From the NCBI RefSeq assembly GCF_958298935.1, contig NC_084938.1, positions 317,501 through 381,500 of the forward strand: DNA of 64,000 nt. Reading direction: 5' to 3'. Origin of the DNA: Phragmites australis. Taxonomy: Eukaryota; Streptophyta; Magnoliopsida; Poales; Poaceae. The position numbers were made by a program, and so were the translations under genes. Under the pieces are notes generated by a model that saw only the letters and a program-made list of their open reading frames with translations, had not been told where the DNA came from and made no database searches. Below, piece after piece: positions 2,918 to 63,698 of the stretch (the first letter of the stretch is position 1; each line of letters starts with the position of its first letter).

Positions 2918-3543
2918 GCCCTGTTCAGGGAATACTGCGAGGACCTCTGGATCAAGCTTTGCTTTGCTTCTGTTGCTCATCCCCGTAGCAACGGGCAAGT
3001 CGAGCGCGCAAATGCCGAGATATTGAAGGGGCTCAGGACCCGGACCTACGACGTGCTCGCAAAGCATGGGAAAGGGTGGATCGATGAGCTACCCGCTGTG
3101 TTATGGGCCAACCGGACCACACCAAGCCGGGCCATCGGGGAGACGCCTTTCTTCCTCATCTATGGCACCGAGGTTGTCCTCCCCTCCGAGCTTACGCTCG
3201 TTTCATCTCAGGTGAACGCATACTCGGAGGGTGAGCAAGAACAGAGAAGACATGACGACATCGAGCACTTGGAGGAGCATCGGCGACGAGCCGTTGTCTG
3301 AGCCGCCAGATATTAGCAGAGCCTGAGGTGTTACCATCAGCGCCGTGTCCAGACCCGGTCGCTCGAGGTTGGGGATTTGGTTCTCCGACGCGCTCAGACG
3401 CGCGAAGGAAAGAACAAGCTCTCCCCCATGTGGGAAGGCCCCTTCGTTGTGACCAGTACCCCACGACAAGGCTCGTTTCGATTGGCCACAGAGGACGGGC
3501 AGCCTCTCCTGAATGCTTGGAATATCGAGCACCTTCGTAAATT
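2918..3543 (+). pseudogene. Integrase C-terminal fragment, copy 1
   Basis: This segment contains integrase core end HPRSNGQVERANAEILKGL followed by a region with NRTTPSRAIGETPFFLIYG, typical of Tat-lineage integrases. The reading frame stays open to about 3301 and then decays. The upstream half of the integrase, with the first two catalytic acidic residues, is missing because the segment starts abruptly at 2918 against foreign LTR sequence. It is a near copy of 7514-8125. Confidence 0.85.
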
Positions 3544-3551
3544 TTATCCAT

Positions 3552-4698
3552 AGGTAAGCGTGTCTGTGCTCGGGCTAACTAGGTCAGGGGTCTTCCCCCT
3601 GCCCAAATTGGCCGGGGGCTCATACCAACCGCGTAAGTTAGCACTTGCTATTTATTTTCGTCACTTCTGTATGAATCATTAATATACGCCTATGTTGCTC
3701 TTATTCTGAGTTTTCCTCTGGAATCCATATATTAATCTGCTTGGTAAGATGCTCGACTCATGCGCAAAAAATACGTTCTCTCTTGTTTTCCCGCTGACAA
3801 AAACGGATGCCAGTCGGTAAGCGGCACAGGCTGCGATCGCCGACCTAAGTCCGTTGTGGTAGGCTATGGTGCCCAGCTGCTGTGGCAATACCCCGAGCAC
3901 TACCGAGCCTCTGGGGTTCTCGGGTGATTCTACCGCTCGAGCATGAGTGGTCGGGACCGCCTAGTCCCCAGGGGCGGGTTGTTGGTGCTCGGCCTGGTTA
4001 GTCCCAGCCCGAACACCATCGAACCATGGGACCTCTTGGTCGTATCTCTGTCTGTGCACTTCGCCGGTCGGGCATTCGAGAGGTCGCGGGTTAGAAACGA
4101 GAGCAAGCTATAATGAGTACCGCACCGACAGAGCGCACCAAGCAAAGAAACCTTACCTATTTTAAGCTTACAGAAAAATGCTCCAGAACCAAGCAACCCG
4201 AGCACAAGGGCATCAATGCCCAGGGCGCTACCGAGCCTCTGGGGTCCTCGAGTAATCCTACCACTCGGGCATGAGTGGTCGGGACCACCTAGCCTCTAGT
4301 TCCATTGTCGGGTTTGGAGTGCTCGGGTGCTAAAAGGACGACCTGGGAACACAGAGAAAAACGAGAGAGCTAGAGATCGAGAAAGACATAGAGACAGCCG
4401 ATAGAACAGCAGAAGCTAGAGATAGAAAAAAGGATCCAGAGATCGAGAGAGATCCAGAGAAAGGCATTCAAAGAGCATTGATAACATACTAGACACACAA
4501 GAGTAGAGTATTACGCCTCGGTGCGGCCTGAACCTGTCTAAACCCTTGGTGCATTTATTTCTACCAGCTGATGATGATCCATCCTGCCTAAGTCCTACAT
4601 GCATTAACCCCACGTACGAGGTAGTTCCAGGCATAGCCCCCCGGTCGAATCTCGAAGGGGATCCCTCATGATCCCTGCTCGCGGTGTTCATCCACTGA
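3552..4698 (+). repeat. LTR copy 1 of the Tat-like element (boundaries approximate)
   Basis: Non-coding block repeated at about 8133-9275. The two copies end together at 4698 and 9275 (shared gttcatccactga). Inside each copy a module of about 63 bp containing 'catgagtggtcgggacc' occurs twice, here near 3911-3973 and 4234-4296. The exact 5' edge is not certain; the true LTR may start some tens of bases later, after the G-rich stretch near 3610. Confidence 0.7.
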
Positions 4699-4699
4699 C

Positions 4700-6250
4700 A
4701 GTTGGCGTGGTGACCTAGAAGCTAAATAGGAAAGCGCGCTCGTCACCTTCCTCCGGGCTAACGCCGACGTGTTTGCATAGCAGCCGTCGGATATGCCTGG
4801 GATCCCTAGGGAGGTGATCGAGCACCACCTTGCCGTGTGCCCAGACGCACGGCCTGTGAGGCAAAAGATTCGCCGACAGGCACCCGAGCGCCAGGAGTTC
4901 ATTCGGGAGCAAGTCAACAAGCTCCTTGACTCCGGCTTTGTCCGAGAAGTCCTCCACCCGGAGTGGCTTGCAAACCCCGTCGTCGTCCCCAAGGCCAATG
5001 GCAGGTTGAGGATATGCGTCGACTACACTGACCTTAATAAGGCTTGCCCAAAAGATCCTTTCCCTCTACCTCGCATAGACTAGATTGTCGATTCCACTGC
5101 GGGGTGTGATCTTTTGAGCTTTCTTGATGCAAATTCGGGCTATCACCAAATTCGCATGGCCAAGCAAGATGAAGAAAAAACATCTTTTATTTCCCCAGTG
5201 GGGACTTATTGCTATGTGTCTATGCCTTTTGGTTTGCGCAACGCTGGATCTTCATTCCAGTGAGCCGTCCGCATTACCCTTAACACGCAGATTGGTCGCA
5301 ACATCGAAGCTTATGTCAACGACATTGTGGTCAAGTCCCGAGAATGAGCCACCCTGCTAGAAGACTTGGCCGAGACGTTCAATAGTCTTCGCAGCATGCG
5401 CCTGAAGCTCAACCCCGAGAAGTGCGTATTTGGAGTACCCGCGGGCAGACTCCTCGGCTTCTTGGTCTCCAGTCGCGGAATCGAGGCCAATCCCGAGAAG
5501 ATCCGGGCCATCGAGCAGATGCGTTCCACAGCTCGACTCAAAGAGGTACAATGTCTCGCTGGGTATATGGCAGCCTTGGGGCGTTTCATCTCCAAGCTCG
5601 GGGAGCGGGGGCTTCCACTCTTCAAATTGCTGAAGAAGACCGGTCGTATTGACTGGCCACTAAAGGCCGAGCAGGCCTTCCAAGACTTAAAGATGTACCT
5701 CACCTCGCCGCTCGTACTGGTGGCTCCCGGCAAGGGTGAACCTCTATTGCTCTACGTGTCGGCCACTCCTCAGGTTGTGAGCATGGTGCTGGTGGTGGAG
5801 CGTTATGAGTGCTCAGGGTAAGGTGCTGGGTTCGAGCTCCCGACCGCCCCCGAGCAGCCTCTGGGACGCGGGACCACTCCCGACCAGGGGCTTGAGCTCG
5901 GGACCTCGGCAGGCCCCGAACCCTGCGTTGAGCTCAGGGGCTGTGGCAAGGCCTCGGGCGAGGCAGCAGTCGGGGCCCGCCGAATACAGCGATCGGTGTA
6001 CTTCGTTAGTGAAGTCCTAAGAGATGCCAAAACGAGATACCCTCAAGCACAGAAGATGCTCTATGCAATGCTTATTGCTTCCGAGAAGCTGCGACACTAC
6101 TTCCAGACGCACAAGGTCTCGGTGGTAACCACATACCCACTAGGACCGATCCTGCGGAACCAAGAAGGTACCGGACGTATCGTCAAGTGGGCGGTCAAGC
6201 TCGCGGAATTCGATCTGCACTTCATCAGTTGCCACGCGATCAAAAGCTAG
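4700..6250 (+). pseudogene. Gypsy reverse transcriptase (and first RNase H) remnant
   Basis: From 4793 the frame reads a typical RT start (VRQKIRRQAPERQEFI, then RICVDYTDLNKACPKDPFPL). The next RT blocks (LLSFLDANSGYHQI, MPFGLRNAGSSFQ) lie in a shifted frame with stops near 5083 and 5260. The active-site motif reads YVND near 5315-5325 instead of YVDD, so one catalytic aspartate is lost. The thumb and connection follow in 5366-5821. A GC-rich linker at 5820-5990 separates it from a short RNase H-like continuation ending at 6250. It is clearly non-functional. Confidence 0.88.
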
Positions 6251-57758: not shown

Positions 57759-57774
57759 TAAAGATGGCCAAATG

Positions 57775-58145
57775 GGCCAATCGGGCCGGCCCGGCACGGG
57801 CCCATCTCAGCACGGCCCGAAATCGGCACGGCCCGATTGGCCCATTTACTGTTACGGGCCGTGCCGTGCCGGCCCGCGTGCCGAGCCGTCGGCCCACGGC
57901 ACGGCCCAACTGTCACCGTGCCGTGCCGTGCCGGGCCGGCCCACGGCACGGTCGGCACGATGGGCCCGGCCGGCACGATGGGCCCGTTCGGCACGATGGG
58001 CCCGTTCGGCACGGTGGAGGCACGATAGGCCCGTTCGGCACGACGGGCCCGATCGGCACGGTGGAGGCACGACGGGCCCGGCCGGCACGGGAAGGCACGA
58101 CGGGCCCGGCAGGCACGGTGGAGGCACGTTGGGCCCGTCAGCACT
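57775..58145. repeat. Left subterminal array of the hAT element
   Basis: Units of about 15-20 bp built on 'ggcacgatgggcccg' repeat across the region (clearest from 57945 to 58140), with variants such as 'ggcacggtggaggcacga'. The long open frames here in all phases are caused by the repeat. Such arrays usually bind transposase; this is inferred. Confidence 0.85.
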
Positions 58146-58226
58146 CAAAAAAATAGGAAAAAATCAAAAATAATAGCTAAAAAATCAAAAAAACAATAAA
58201 AAATATGAAAAATAAATACATAACAT

Positions 58227-58286
58227 CTTTATTGATTGGTTGCCTCGTTAAAAACCTTTCTACTAGAAGGAAAAAAGAGTACAACC
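58227..58286 (-). repeat. 3' untranslated module, copy of 58762-58820
   Basis: On the minus strand both copies read 'ggttgtactcttttttcctt', then 'agaaaggttttt', then 'gaggcaacc' and 'atcaataaag', including an AATAAA poly(A) signal (complement at 58228-58233 and 58763-58768). One copy follows the BED mini-frame and the other follows the transposase frame. The pair shows that the two transcription units descend from one duplicated gene end. Confidence 0.85.
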
Positions 58287-58305
58287 AATGATTATGCTCC
58301 GAAAA

Positions 58306-58521
58306 TTACATGGTTTCATTAGAAACCCCAGAAATTTGCTTGCAATTTTTCATATGCTTCCTCAAGTGTCCCGTTCCATGTGAAGATCTGGCACCTATTT
58401 CTATACTGCATATATTACACTTAGCAAATCTTACCTATTCCCCGTTAATTTCTTTGAAGACCTTTTCAAAATGTTGCCACACTTGGGACCATACACCTGA
58501 GTTCTCGGCGCCTTGATCCAT
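58306..58521 (-). pseudogene. BED zinc-finger-only mini-gene inside the hAT element
   Basis: From the ATG at 58521 to the TAA at 58308-58306 the minus strand gives a 71-codon frame interrupted by one TAG (58435-58433 region). It covers just a BED-type finger: VWQHFEKVFKEINGE, stop, VRFAKCNICSIEIGARSS, GTGHLRKHMKNCKQ. The C-x2-C and H-x3-H positions match the finger of the transposase (KCYIC, GHLKRHAIS), but the residues differ at about half of the positions. It has its own TATA box (58632-58642) and its own 3' module with a poly(A) signal. No catalytic domain follows. If the TAG is read through or is private to this copy, the product would be a DNA-binding protein without transposase activity; that is inference. 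Confidence 0.72.
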
Positions 58522-58631
58522 GAATTGAAATATGGAATTAGTTTCTTGATGTGAAGTGAATACTGGCTACTTGGCTAGCAAATAGGAAAAGAGAGATGGG
58601 TGGGCAGGGTGGAGTTTGAGATGGAGTAGAT

Positions 58632-58642
58632 GGTATTTATAG
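58632..58642 (-). promoter_or_regulatory. TATA box of the BED mini-gene
   Basis: The minus strand reads ctataaatacc about 110 bases before the mini-gene ATG. It resembles the transposase TATA region (ctataaatagagg, 61293-61305 complement). Confidence 0.6.
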
Positions 58643-58761
58643 GGATGAGAGGAGAGGTAGGTGGGGGTGGGGCCGTGGGGGGTATTTTAAAAAAATAAAC
58701 AAAAAACATGAATAAAAAAACTTAGAAATAATAGGGGCACATGATTAATTCTAAAAATGAG

Positions 58762-58820
58762 CTTTATTGATAGGTTGCCTCATTAAAAACCTTTCTAGCA
58801 AAGGAAAAAAGAGTACAACC
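58762..58820 (-). repeat. 3' untranslated module of the transposase gene
   Basis: This lies about 20-80 bases after the transposase stop and is nearly identical to 58227-58286. It contains the AATAAA signal on the minus strand. Confidence 0.85.
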
Positions 58821-58839
58821 TAGCTCAGAAAATTTAAAA

Positions 58840-60993
58840 TTACACGTTCTCATCAGCATCTAGATACAAATTTTGGAATGATTCTTCAAGCTCAGTATTT
58901 TCTGCAGTGTGTTGCATTCGTGCTTCAGCTTGTTCCCAATCCTTTACTATGGTGAGTATTTCAACCATCTCACTTGACAGATTTGTTCTTCTCTCTTCGA
59001 TTATCCTTCCTGTAAGACTGAAGGCAGCCTCAGAAGAAACTGTAGATACAGGAACCGTTAACAAATCTCGCGCTAACAGTGAAAGGACTGGATAATTCGT
59101 CTTGTGCTCATGCCACCATTGCAGTATGTTGAAGTTTTCTTGTTCGTGGCTGATAACGTCACTGTCGATGAAGGTAGTTAGCTCCCCTCCGGATGTTGGA
59201 ATTCTGGTGCCCGTAGACGATCGTGACGAAGAGTCTGAACTTCTTGATGAAGAACCTGCACCAAATATTTTTCCCCACGTTGTCGTCTTCTTACTTGTTG
59301 TGGGTGCTAGTGGAGGTCGTTGCAGGCGAACTCCGCCATACTTTGTTTCATATTTACTATAAACTTCGAATAACTTAGAACGAACATTAGTATAATAATT
59401 AGAATAATCATGGCCAAGAGCATCACCTAGAATTGCGAGAACTCTACAGAAAGCTGCAATTTTAGCTCTAGGATCTAAAATAAAGGCAAAAGCGTATAAC
59501 AAAGGAATTTCTTTCCAATACTTTAAGAATTTAGATTTCATAGGAACTACACAATCTCTTAAAAGATTGTCATTTTCATAGTTGTTTAAATAAGTAGCAA
59601 TTTCAACAATATTATACACTACTAAACAAGATGTTGGATAATAAACTCCTGATAAACTCACAGTTGAATCATAAAAAAATTCAAGAAACTCCAGTATCCT
59701 TTCAGCAACATACCAATACGCTTCCGTGAGTAAAGTTTGACCCCCATGCTGATGGTAATGTGTATGAATAAACACACCAAATGTGCTCTTATATGGTATA
59801 ATATTTTTAAGCATCAAGAAAGTAGAGTTCCATCTCACCGGCATGTCCAGAGCAAACTTACGTGGACGCACACCCATTGCAACACAATACTGTTTATATG
59901 CTGCAATTCGTTGGTTAGAGGAGTTCACAAAAGATATTGCAGTACGAAAATCTTCTAAGTATCGCGATAACCTCTTCAAACCGGATTTTACTATAAGATT
60001 GATAATATGACAAGCACAACGTTGATGTAACAAGAAAGATTCAGCATAAGTACTAAACAACGGAGTAAGAATATCCATTGCTCTAGAATTTGCACCGGCA
60101 TTATCTAAAGTGATAGAAAATATTTTATTCGTGAGGCCAAAGTCTGCAACTACTTGAGATATTTTTTCAGCAATATTTTCACCGGTATGCGCGTTGTCAA
60201 TCAAGTGAAAACCTATTATTCTCTTTTCTAATTCCCAATCATTATTAACAAAATGAGCAACCACACTAAGATAATCCTCTCTAGCCCTACCTGCCCATAT
60301 GTCCGAGGTCAAAGCAACTGAAAATGTACATGTTTGCAACATTTCTTTAAGTTTGCTACGACACGTATTGTAGTATTTTACCATATCCCTACTAGTTGTC
60401 TGTCTAGAAACATGCGTGAACCTAGGATTATGAGCTTGCTTAATGTAATCTTCAAATGCAGCAGACTCACCGATATTGAGTGGTAGATCCGCTCTTGCAA
60501 TGAAACGACATATCTCTTTTCGAGCATTGGCAGAGTCGTACTCCCAATGATGAACAGAGCCGTCGGGGTTGTACTGCAACACCGTCTGCTTCATGGCTGC
60601 TCCACTCTTTCGCTTGCAACTTATGGCATGCCTCTTCAAGTGCCCCGTTCCACCCGAGGGCTTTGCAGATAATTCATTTTTACAAATATAACACTTAGCA
60701 TACCTGACACTTACCCCATCTTCCTCTTTGTAGATCCTTTCAAAGTCTTGCCAAACTTCGGAAGTACCGGCTCTTGATCTTTTAGACCCGTTGCTTGCTA
60801 ATGTGTGCGCACTTGTAGAGCCTGACGATGGCACTCCTGCTGCATCACCTGGATCTGGATGTGAACCAACCGGAGGTTCACCGTCGGGTCCATCATCACC
60901 TGCAGCACTAGTATCAAAGGGGCCGTAGTCCCCTGTGAGTCCTTGGAGAAAAAAATCATGATCTATGGATGTATCATGATCACCGGCATCCAT
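58840..60993 (-). CDS. hAT transposase, full length
   Basis: A single open frame of 717 residues, a normal size for plant hAT transposases, starting at the ATG at 60993 (an in-frame TAG lies shortly upstream). Order: acidic/Gly-rich N terminus, NLS-like SKRSR near 70-74, BED zinc finger at about 78-126 (Cys101, Cys104, His118, His122), then the RNase H-like catalytic fold with TSDIW and ITLDNAGAN holding the two conserved aspartates. The insertion domain CACHIINLIVK, PVRWNSTFLML and the C-terminal hATC dimerisation domain (LQWWHEHKTNYPVLSLLARD, PVSTVSSEAAFS, RTNLSSEMVEI) follow. No stop or frameshift is present. It would cut and rejoin the element ends in the nucleus after binding the subterminal arrays. 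A possible leader intron lies at about 61011-61100. Neighbours are the mini BED unit downstream and the right array upstream. A domesticated DAYSLEEPER-type gene is less likely, because the frame sits inside intact transposon ends. Confidence 0.95.
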   Translation of the reverse strand: MDAGDHDTSIDHDFFLQGLTGDYGPFDTSAAGDDGPDGEPPVGSHPDPGDAAGVPSSGSTSAHTLASNGSKRSRAGTSEVWQDFERIYKEEDGVSVRYAKCYICKNELSAKPSGGTGHLKRHAISCKRKSGAAMKQTVLQYNPDGSVHHWEYDSANARKEICRFIARADLPLNIGESAAFEDYIKQAHNPRFTHVSRQTTSRDMVKYYNTCRSKLKEMLQTCTFSVALTSDIWAGRAREDYLSVVAHFVNNDWELEKRIIGFHLIDNAHTGENIAEKISQVVADFGLTNKIFSITLDNAGANSRAMDILTPLFSTYAESFLLHQRCACHIINLIVKSGLKRLSRYLEDFRTAISFVNSSNQRIAAYKQYCVAMGVRPRKFALDMPVRWNSTFLMLKNIIPYKSTFGVFIHTHYHQHGGQTLLTEAYWYVAERILEFLEFFYDSTVSLSGVYYPTSCLVVYNIVEIATYLNNYENDNLLRDCVVPMKSKFLKYWKEIPLLYAFAFILDPRAKIAAFCRVLAILGDALGHDYSNYYTNVRSKLFEVYSKYETKYGGVRLQRPPLAPTTSKKTTTWGKIFGAGSSSRSSDSSSRSSTGTRIPTSGGELTTFIDSDVISHEQENFNILQWWHEHKTNYPVLSLLARDLLTVPVSTVSSEAAFSLTGRIIEERRTNLSSEMVEILTIVKDWEQAEARMQHTAENTELEESFQNLYLDADENV

Positions 60994-61292
60994 GATCAAT
61001 GTCGAATGACACTACAAAAATTGCAAATATTCAGAGTTAGAAATAATCAAATAATAAAACTAATAATAAAATAAGACTCAACAACGATGCAAAAAAATCA
61101 CCAAGATTTCTTCAACTTCAAGATAGCAAATCAGCAGGATGACGATTTTGGAATTGCTCGGATTTTTTTGCAATAATTCAAACTAATTTTGCCAAATTAT
61201 CGCTAATTCTCACGAACTTTGAGACAAGAATGAGAGGAGGAAACAAGAGAGAAAATGGTGTTGCTGGTGTGGAATGGAAGGGCAAGGTTCTC

Positions 61293-61305
61293 CTCTATTT
61301 ATAGG
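61293..61305 (-). promoter_or_regulatory. TATA box of the hAT transposase gene
   Basis: The minus strand reads cctataaatagagg about 300 bases before the start codon; transcription would start near 61265. It lies just inside the right subterminal array. Confidence 0.6.
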
Positions 61306-61389
61306 TGAAAAATGGTGATTTTTGCAATTTTTTTCGAATTTTTTGGAGCTCAAACGGTCACAAAACGGCTATAAAATTCAAAAATATCA

Positions 61390-61437
61390 GGTTAACGGGT
61401 TAAACGGGCCGTTCCCGGCCCGTTTAACCCGTTAACC
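61390..61437. repeat. Perfect palindrome at the inner edge of the right hAT array
   Basis: Arms 61390-61411 and 61416-61437 are perfect reverse complements over 22 bases, separated by ttcc. The arm contains gttaacgggttaaacgggcc. The structure could form a strong hairpin in DNA or RNA. Confidence 0.95.
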
Positions 61438-61870
61438 CGCGTGCCCCCGCCGGCCCATCGTGCCCCACGTGCCGGCCGGGCCGTGCCCCCCGCGGTGGGC
61501 CGTGCCGTGCCGTGCCGGCCCGGCCGTGCCGTGGGCCGCCGCGTGCCGAGCCGGCACGGTGGGCCATGCCGTGCCGGGCCGGCCGTGCCGTGATGGGCCG
61601 GCCGTGCCGTGATGGGCCGCCACGTGCCGTGCCGGCCCGGCCCGGCCGTGCCTCCTGGGCCAGCCGTGCCTGAGCCGGGCCGTGCCGGGCTGTGCCGTGC
61701 CCGTGCCGCCCGTGAGCCGGGCCGTGCCGTGCCGGCCCGCCGTGCCGCGCGCTCGGCCCAGGCATGGCCCGTGGCCTCGTGCCGTGCCGGCCCAGCCCAT
61801 CTCGGCTCGGGCCGGGCCGTGCTTGGGCCGTGCCTACAGTTCCGTGCCTCGGGCCGGCCCAATAAGCACG
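61438..61870. repeat. Right subterminal array of the hAT element
   Basis: 'ggccgtgccgtgccgg', 'ggcccatcgtgcc' and variants repeat densely. 'ggcccatcgtgcc' is the complement of the left array unit, so the two arrays point inward as inverted copies. Open frames here are repeat artefacts. Confidence 0.85.
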
Positions 61871-61889
61871 GCCCATTTGGCCATCTTTA

Positions 61890-62643: not shown

Positions 62644-63698
62644 CACTACATAAGAGACCAGTAACGGAGACACCATATTAGTGATGGCTGCTCAACACGC
62701 GTCACTAATGTTCTATTAGTGACGGATCCAATAAGGACGCGTCACTAATGTCCATTCTGATCGGGATCAGATATAGACCCATCACTGATGATAATAGTGA
62801 CGGGTCGTCCTAGGCCAGTCATTAATGACGGGTCAAATTGTGACCCATCACTAATGATAAGGTTATAAGTGACGACCTATCCTACGCCAGTCATTAGTGA
62901 TGGATCAAGTTGTGACCCGTCACTAATGATAAGGTCATCAATGACGGGTCGTCCTAAGCAAGTCATTAGTGACGGGTCACAACTTGACCCATCACTAATG
63001 ATTCATGACGGGTCGTCCTAAGCAAGTCATTAGTGATGGGTCATCATATGCGAGTCATTAGTGACGGGTCAACTTGTAATCCGTCACTAATGACGGTATT
63101 CACAAATATTTTTTATTTTTATTTTATTTTTCTCTTATATTTTCTCACCTCAGCAGCACTAGAATAGGAACCACTATATATTTCTGCTCAAGTTTGATGT
63201 AAGTGTGGTCGCTATAGACACAAGCGCGCGTTCCAAAAATAGTGTAGAAACTTTCGAGGGTGAAAACTCAATCTTTCAAGCCGTTTGGCTTCAAAAAATT
63301 CTCTAAACCCAACGAAGTGGGGGGGAGAAATGAATGTAACTTTTTTTAGATGTTTGTGGAGTCAAAAACGTCGAAATCAGAGTCCGCATGCAGAAGTTAT
63401 GCTCGTTTTACCGAATACACTCTGGATCACCTATCAAATTATAACCCTCGACGAAATTTGGTAAAATTAGTCATTAGTGATGGATCATGGTTATGACGTG
63501 TCACTAATAACCTTCAGCAAAAAAGGTTAAAAAGATAAAATATCCGATTTTTATCACAACTACGTGATAGTAGTAGAGGTGGTAAGGTGGCTACACACGC
63601 GAGAAGGAGGTCACATGTTCGATTCCCCCGGAACGCAAACTTGAAAAAAATGTGAAAAAAGCGTGGCTTGTGAGGCATATGAGATGGGACTGCGTTAG
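62644..63698. mobile_element. CACTA-like element with attagtgacgggtc subterminal repeats, right end truncated
   Basis: It starts CACTACATAAGAG at 62644. From 62680 to 63100 'attagtgacgggtc' and its complement alternate more than ten times, including 'tcactaatgacgg'. A unique core follows at 63110-63460, then further repeats at 63465-63520 and a tRNA-like segment. The expected complementary terminus is missing; at 63699 other sequence begins. No transposase frame is present. Confidence 0.68.
63571..63640 (+). other. tRNA-like segment in the third CACTA-like element
   Basis: TAGTAGAGGTGG (63571-63582) resembles box A, and 'aaggaggtcacatgttcgattcc' ends in the box B-like TGTTCGATTCC at 63616-63626. 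No full cloverleaf forms. It sits in the same place, next to the right subterminal repeats, as in the other two elements. Confidence 0.55.

What the first reader, a model, noticed from the sequence alone, without database searches (positions are those of the whole stretch)
58306..58642. A second, BED-finger-only transcription unit inside the hAT element
Downstream of the transposase is a complete small unit in the same orientation: TATA box, ATG, BED finger, stop, and a 3' module with AATAAA that is nearly the same as that of the transposase. The finger itself has diverged strongly while the 3' module has not, so it is not simply a recent internal deletion. A DNA-binding finger without catalytic domain could act as a self-encoded repressor or as competitor for the subterminal arrays. 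The frame has one TAG, which may be private to this copy. I know of no described hAT family with this arrangement.
Basis: partly seen in the sequence, partly recalled or inferred. Interest (0 to 1): 0.82.

Follow-up and report, generated by a model that had tools for sequence, protein, structure and literature searches.

The report
hAT transposon with second finger gene
A recently active plant jumping gene carries, besides its transposase, a tiny second gene for only the DNA-binding zinc finger; it is intact in most copies examined, so the element may encode its own regulator, although that function is untested.

Summary
On the minus strand, downstream of an open 717-codon hAT transposase, lies a compact unit: CTATAAATA, an ATG-free leader, a 71-codon BED-finger frame, and a 3' module with AATAAA. 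The TAG at codon 29 is a lesion of this copy: 39 of 40 finger-ranked copies are open. All 66 transposase-ranked copies examined carry the unit, 54 with the full ATG-started frame. A metagenomic protein matches an intact copy. The TIR is 17/19 identical to rice Dart. Eight of 40 copies are identical over the 3.25-kb core, so the unit rode a recent amplification.

The unit looks derived from a transposase gene by internal deletion. Its finger is old (29 of 56 residues shared) and diverged under protein constraint (0 of 3000 neutral simulations match at 0.3 or more substitutions per site). But between subfamilies dN/dS is about 0.9, and the finger changed faster than its flanks, so recent purifying selection is not shown.

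I favour an element-encoded, array-binding BED-only regulator; a neutral passenger remains nearly as likely. My searches found no other family with this arrangement.

The parts
57759..61889 (-). Complete hAT (Dart-like) element, 4131 bp
   Evidence: First 20 bases of both ends identical, TAAAGATGGCCAAATGGGCC (one search prints both ends); flanked by an 8-bp duplication CTCATAGA; most of the other 39 fetched copies match between the same two points
58841..60993 (-). Transposase gene, 717 codons, open
   Evidence: Pfam Dimer_Tnp_hAT E 6.9e-24, hAT-like RNase-H 4.4e-13, zf-BED below cut-off (14.8 bits); TATAAATA about 310 bases upstream of the ATG
58760..58840 (-). Transposase 3' module with AATAAA at 58768-58763
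   Evidence: 91.7% identical over 60 bases to the mini-unit module
58634..58642 (-). CTATAAATA of the mini unit
   Evidence: Present only twice in the window
58522..58633 (-). Leader without any ATG
58306..58521 (-). BED-finger-only frame of 71 codons, with TAG at codon 29 (58437-58435) in this copy only among the 40 finger-ranked copies
58220..58305 (-). Mini-unit 3' module with AATAAA at 58233-58228
57759..58143 (.). Subterminal GC-rich array beside the mini unit; GGCACG 20 times counting both strands
   Evidence: 0 in the internal region
61400..61889 (.). Subterminal GC-rich array on the transposase-promoter side; GGCACG 23 times counting both strands

Best explanation
This is a Dart-like hAT element with two genes. 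The second gene arose from a transposase gene that lost its catalytic part by internal deletion, keeping the BED finger, the last codons, the stop and the 3' module, under a promoter of its own (read from sequence; transcription is inferred from promoter and poly(A) sequences). It is present in every transposase-bearing copy examined and intact in the recently amplified copies (shown). Inferred: it makes a 71-residue BED-only protein that binds the element's subterminal GGCACG-rich arrays, alone or in place of transposase, and so modulates the element. I take competition with transposase for array sites (dampening) as the most direct consequence, with protection of the arrays from silencing as the main alternative sign. 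The confidence is for an array-binding regulator of either sign.
For: Frame open in 39 of 40 finger-ranked copies; among these, open in all 12 in which my script did not read a 717-codon transposase frame (two of the 12, L023 and L045, still show a 707-codon frame without stops, so about 10 are clearly defective or not scored there). Of 66 transposase-ranked copies examined, all carry the unit and 54 have the full ATG-started frame: 35 shared with the first sample, 34 of them full, and 31 more with 20 full, 5 start lost, 5 stop, 1 indel. Eight of 40 copies identical over the 3.25-kb core. In a 9-row alignment of 2 mini proteins and 7 transposase fingers, 15 columns are identical in all rows, including three Cys and two His. 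The mini finger scores 75 bits with an HMM of 77 other transposase fingers (own transposase 88); neutral simulations from the own transposase finger reach that score in 10.6% at 0.1, 0.2% at 0.2, and 0 of 3000 at 0.3, 0.45 and 0.6 substitutions per site. Its own TATA-like box and ATG-free leader. The isolated BED domain of Hermes binds subterminal-repeat DNA, cooperatively (PMC10368747, passages), so a BED-only protein is physically plausible.
Against: No RNA, protein or binding evidence. Between subfamilies (4 older copies) the finger frame has dN 0.046 and dS 0.050, no sign of purifying selection. Variants shared by 3 or more of 59 copies are 6 nonsynonymous to 1 synonymous, by 2 or more 10 to 3; on the 40-copy sample alone only 2 finger-frame variants have 3 or more carriers. 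The mini finger shares only 29 of 56 residues with the transposase finger, so it may not bind the same motif. No second family with such a unit was found: the profile search returned 11 proteins, one mini protein from this family and 10 that read as N-terminal parts of transposases or other BED fragments.
Confidence: 0.5

Rival explanations
1. Neutral passenger: a truncated transposase gene hitch-hikes in the element without function; it looks intact because the family amplified recently from few masters.
For: Many copies are young (8 of 40 identical in the core). Finger-frame dN/dS about 0.92 between subfamilies. All finger-frame variants taken together fit neutral expectation (26 N, 10 S, 2 stop observed in 59 copies; about 24, 10, 4 from the expected fractions). 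12 of 66 transposase-ranked copies have lost the full frame.
Against: The finger is too well preserved for neutral drift over its divergence from the transposase finger, if it was already separate then. It changes faster than its own flanks between subfamilies (10 of 216 against 2 of 318, p 0.005; 0.035 if a clustered change counts once). The leader has no ATG, and promoter and leader show 0 and 2 shared differences between subfamilies.
Confidence: 0.4
2. Anti-silencing or accessory factor (one sign of the favoured reading): the BED-only protein coats the subterminal arrays and keeps the element's ends and promoters unmethylated, or helps the transposase assemble, as VANC proteins do for VANDAL elements and TnpA for Spm.
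For: All 66 transposase-bearing copies examined keep the unit, easier to explain if it helps its carrier. Motif arrays at both ends (GGCACG 20 and 23, internal 0). Between subfamilies amino-acid change concentrates in the two fingers (9 N: 2 S codons) and not in the rest of the transposase (2 N: 7 S), Fisher p 0.022, as expected if fingers track changing arrays; VANC targets are rapidly diverging tandem repeats (PMC10398659, passages).
Against: No methylation data; counts are small, post hoc and rest on 4 older copies; the finger frame alone against the whole transposase gives N:S p 0.20; similarity to VANC was not tested; the fast change is also what relaxed constraint or gene conversion gives.
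Confidence: 0.22
3. Recent capture (a rival for the origin, not exclusive of the others): the finger evolved inside a full-length transposase of an unsampled Dart-like family and was truncated or recombined into this element only shortly before the amplification, so its conservation says nothing about selection on the unit.
For: The mini promoter shows no detectable similarity to the element's own transposase promoter (233 of 500 shuffles score as high). The 3' modules are far more alike than the fingers. Finger DNA dN/dS of 0.35 would be explained by transposase constraint.
Against: Among the 120 transposases listed (of 291), none shown has a finger more than 52% identical to the mini finger; the best three by score are the element's own (P0002, 52%), P0012 (49%) and P0003 (52%). 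On a finger tree the mini finger has a long branch of its own (distance to P0003 0.89 against 0.46 for the own transposase; weak support). The 7,990 candidates were chosen by whole-transposase words, so a transposase with a closer finger could have been missed.
Confidence: 0.35

Closest known systems
Dart/nDart hAT elements of rice
   Same: TIR TAGAGGTGGCCAAATGGGC versus TAAAGATGGCCAAATGGGC here, 17 of 19 (the Dart TIR from passages of PMC2956540), 8-bp target duplication
   Different: No second BED-only gene in the passages I saw; that Dart has one gene is recalled, not tested
Hermes transposase BED domain
   Same: Isolated N-terminal BED domain binds subterminal-repeat DNA cooperatively (PMC10368747, passages)
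   Different: Part of the transposase, not a separate gene
VANC of VANDAL elements (MULEs, as recalled) and TnpA of Spm
   Same: Transposon-encoded protein; for VANC, binding to motif-rich repeat arrays and loss of silencing; for TnpA, activation correlated with demethylation (PMC10398659, passages)
   Different: Other superfamilies; function here untested; homology to VANC not tested
KP-type internally deleted P elements (recalled)
   Same: A truncated transposase that keeps the DNA-binding part
   Different: KP is a deletion-derivative copy; here the truncated gene sits beside an intact transposase in the same element
CGGBP proteins, domesticated from hAT
   Same: DNA-binding part of a hAT transposase kept as a protein of its own (PMC8097297, passages)
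   Different: Host genes with BED plus Hermes-type domain, outside any element

Membership tests
hAT superfamily | 8-bp target-site duplication | tested here: met
   Exact in 28 of 40 copies, one mismatch in 2, not found by the exact-end search in 10
hAT superfamily | hAT dimerisation and RNase-H domains in the transposase | tested here: met
   Pfam PF05699 E 6.9e-24 and PF14372 E 4.4e-13
Dart-like subgroup | Terminal inverted repeat like TAGAGGTGGCCAAATGGGC | tested here: met
   17 of 19 identical
Dart-like subgroup | Transposition of the element observed | not testable with these tools
   Only near-identical copies seen
Dart-like subgroup | Transposase groups with Dart transposase in a tree | not tested
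   No Dart protein was identified by name among the hits
BED zinc finger protein | Zinc-ligand pattern and BED profile match in the mini frame | tested here: met
   Pfam zf-BED 23.1 bits, above cut-off, with the TAG as X; C35, C38, H56, C60 identical in all 9 rows
Transposon-encoded anti-silencing factor (VANC type) | Loss of methylation in its own family when expressed | not testable with these tools
   No methylation data
Transposon-encoded anti-silencing factor (VANC type) | Repeated motif arrays in noncoding ends | tested here: met
Truncated-transposase repressor (KP type) | Reduces transposition in trans | not testable with these tools
   No assay
Truncated-transposase repressor (KP type) | Derived from a transposase gene by internal deletion | tested here: inconclusive
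   Finger homology, homologous 3' modules and 15 of 23 bases alike round the stop favour it; the deletion point is not resolved and the promoter is unrelated

The most novel reading that the evidence does not exclude
A two-gene hAT system in which a transposon has split off its own DNA-binding finger as a separate, fast-evolving regulator of its GC-rich subterminal arrays, with both fingers under diversifying change while the catalytic part is conserved: a VANC-like or self-limiting control system in a hAT element.
Probability: 0.35. Interest if true: 0.78.

Novelty: new variant of a known kind. Interest (0 to 1): 0.62.

Why it matters
Elements of other superfamilies encode a second protein (PIF's second frame: passage of PMC2528002; VANC and TnpA: passages of PMC10398659; MuDR's second gene is recalled). 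A hAT family whose copies carry an extra BED-only gene would show that hAT elements can also evolve such control, here by truncating a transposase gene. Because the family is young and high-copy, with intact copies of both genes, it makes the question of whether hAT elements encode their own regulators directly testable.

Tried and rejected
Tried without result: viral-contig scans with the transposase, with the intact mini protein and with a transposase alignment found no relative; the genome-contig scan gave one distant match of 22% in a record titled as a Bacteroidetes MAG. A profile search for short BED-only proteins (11 hits) gave P0001 from this family and 10 others that read as transposase N-terminal parts or BED fragments; candidates were limited to those sharing exact words and of similar length. 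Transposase queries P0003, P0004 and P0013 against the own genome listed only copies I take for this family (62, 62 and 63 scored of 2832, 2768 and 2719 candidates), so no sister family could be compared and lower-scoring families stay unseen. The mini and transposase promoters are not detectably related. By sequence only, the best solved relative is a BED domain, 2djr, at E 0.026. I rejected chance and artefact, the TAG as a family feature, and splicing round the TAG, because the GTAAG donor-like site lies after it (sequence). I considered that the 3' module is conserved because it is a widespread plant transposon 3' signal (recalled); a literature search for its letters found 0 papers, no third copy lies in the window, and the genome pattern test was never run.

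Full report
What is there. The window lies in an 848-Mb genome held in 28 contigs; the named proteins closest to the transposase are from grasses, so a grass is inferred. The element runs from 57759 to 61889, with the first 20 bases of both ends identical and an exact 8-bp duplication CTCATAGA. Its TIR matches that of rice Dart in 17 of 19 positions. On the minus strand it carries a 717-codon transposase frame with hAT dimerisation and RNase-H domains. Between the transposase and the neighbouring GC-rich array lies the unit of the finding. CTATAAATA occurs twice in 64 kb, once before each of the two frames. The leader has no ATG. The 71-codon frame matches Pfam zf-BED above its cut-off, and the 3' module is 91.7% identical to that of the transposase.

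Is the frame real in other copies? The DNA search listed 40 scored copies of the unit among 716 candidates. I fetched all 40 as whole elements. The frame is open for 71 codons in 39 of 40; only the window has TAG, the others CAG. My script read a 717-codon transposase frame in 28 of 40 and not in 12; the unit is intact in those 12, though two of them (L023, L045) still show a 707-codon transposase frame without stops. This sample is ranked by similarity to the unit and therefore biased. A second sample was ranked by transposase: 62 places with query P0003, of which 35 were already in the first sample and 27 were not; 4 further places came from the P0004 and P0013 searches. I fetched a short piece for all 31. 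The unit is present in 31 of 31: 20 full, 5 start codon lost, 5 with a stop, 1 with a deletion. Together, 66 of 66 transposase-ranked copies carry it and 54 of 66 have the full frame (34 of 35 and 20 of 31). These are the best-scoring copies of much longer candidate lists. Outside this assembly, P0001, a 71-aa protein from one 3457-base metagenome contig, is 94% identical to the window frame with Q at the TAG site; it has the same sequence as the L033 frame printed.

Origin. The finger shares 29 of 56 residues with the element's transposase finger; NG86 gives dN 0.34 and dS 0.97. The 3' modules are homologous and the bases round the stop are alike in 15 of 23 positions, so the frame is best read as a transposase gene that lost its middle and most of its N-terminal region. 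The promoter shows no similarity to the transposase promoter above shuffles (233 of 500 score as high). Among the 120 transposases listed, none shown has a finger more than 52% identical to it, the element's own included. A finger tree puts the mini finger with Dart-like grass transposases on a long branch, with weak support. Simulated neutral decay of the transposase finger reached the mini finger's HMM score in 10.6% of 3000 runs at 0.1 substitutions per site, 0.2% at 0.2 and 0 at 0.3, 0.45 and 0.6. The finger therefore diverged under protein constraint, either as a separate unit or inside an unsampled transposase before truncation. These data do not separate the two.

Recent evolution. Within the family, finger-frame variants taken together fit neutral decay (26 N, 10 S, 2 stop in 59 copies), and so do those of the transposase (120 N, 40 S, 6 stop in 40 copies) (one copy with a deletion, L058, was dropped, and L070-L080 were fetched later). 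Shared variants do not show purifying selection on the unit: with 3 or more carriers 6 N to 1 S, against 5 N to 8 S for the transposase; with 2 or more 10 N to 3 S, against 16 N, 10 S and 1 stop. On the same 40 copies the finger frame has only 2 variants with 3 or more carriers and the transposase 13. Four older copies (L077-L084, fetched) give a deeper contrast. Differences shared by at least 3 of the 4 are 10 of 216 in the finger frame, 2 of 318 in its flanks and 13 of 2154 in the transposase. The excess in the finger frame over the transposase outside its finger has p = 5e-6, and 7e-4 if a clustered change at codon 13 is counted once; over the flanks p is 0.005 and 0.035. In the transposase, 3 of the 13 changes lie in its own 57-codon finger, all 3 nonsynonymous; that density alone has p = 0.08. 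Both fingers together have 9 N to 2 S codons and the rest of the transposase 2 N to 7 S, p = 0.022; the mini frame alone against the whole transposase has p = 0.20. The finger frame has dN 0.046 and dS 0.050, the transposase dN 0.0036 and dS 0.0147. The high dS warns that the finger segment may have a deeper history than the transposase, for example through gene conversion, so acceleration is not proven. These p-values are post hoc, treat sites as independent and rest on four copies.

How it may work. Both ends carry arrays with GGCACG 20 and 23 times and none in the internal region. The isolated BED domain of Hermes binds subterminal-repeat DNA (PMC10368747, passages). A free BED finger at these arrays would compete with transposase, or it could shield the arrays from silencing as VANC proteins do (PMC10398659, passages). 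One array-like CACGGCCC lies about 30 bases upstream of the mini TATA-like box and is the only one in the internal region; autoregulation from that is a guess. Which sign the effect has cannot be told from sequence.

Novelty. Four literature searches aimed at hAT elements with a second gene or a separate finger listed 9, 2, 4 and 15 papers (the last out of 8,327 unspecific matches); in the titles, abstracts and passages that I saw none describes one. The library lacks most subscription papers, and repeat databases were not searched, so absence is weak evidence. The protein search found no other family with a BED-only protein of this kind. I rate it a new variant of a known kind.

Noticed in passing
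61390-61437: A 48-base near-perfect palindrome (91.7% to its own reverse complement) between the subterminal array and the transposase promoter.
   Followed up: no
58669-58676: The only CACGGCCC in the internal part of the element (4 and 7 in the arrays) lies about 30 bases upstream of the mini unit's CTATAAATA; possible autoregulatory site.
   Followed up: partly
L079 codon 29 of the mini frame: A second, diverged copy has TAG at the same codon as the window, probably an independent CAG to TAG change.
   Followed up: partly
60993-58841, codon 398 of the transposase: Two positions of the codon each differ in 16 of 40 copies (TTG to ATG and TTG to TTT as scored one by one; the older copies read ATT), a double change that marks subfamilies.
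   Followed up: partly
62808-63071: Tandem repeats of 72 and 28 bases with TGACGGGTC-type units, looking like part of another repeat or transposon.
   Followed up: no
L069 (VBAU01000396.1) 3356-5026: A hAT-like transposase match of 22% identity in a record titled Bacteroidetes MAG, probably a mis-binned eukaryotic contig.
   Followed up: no
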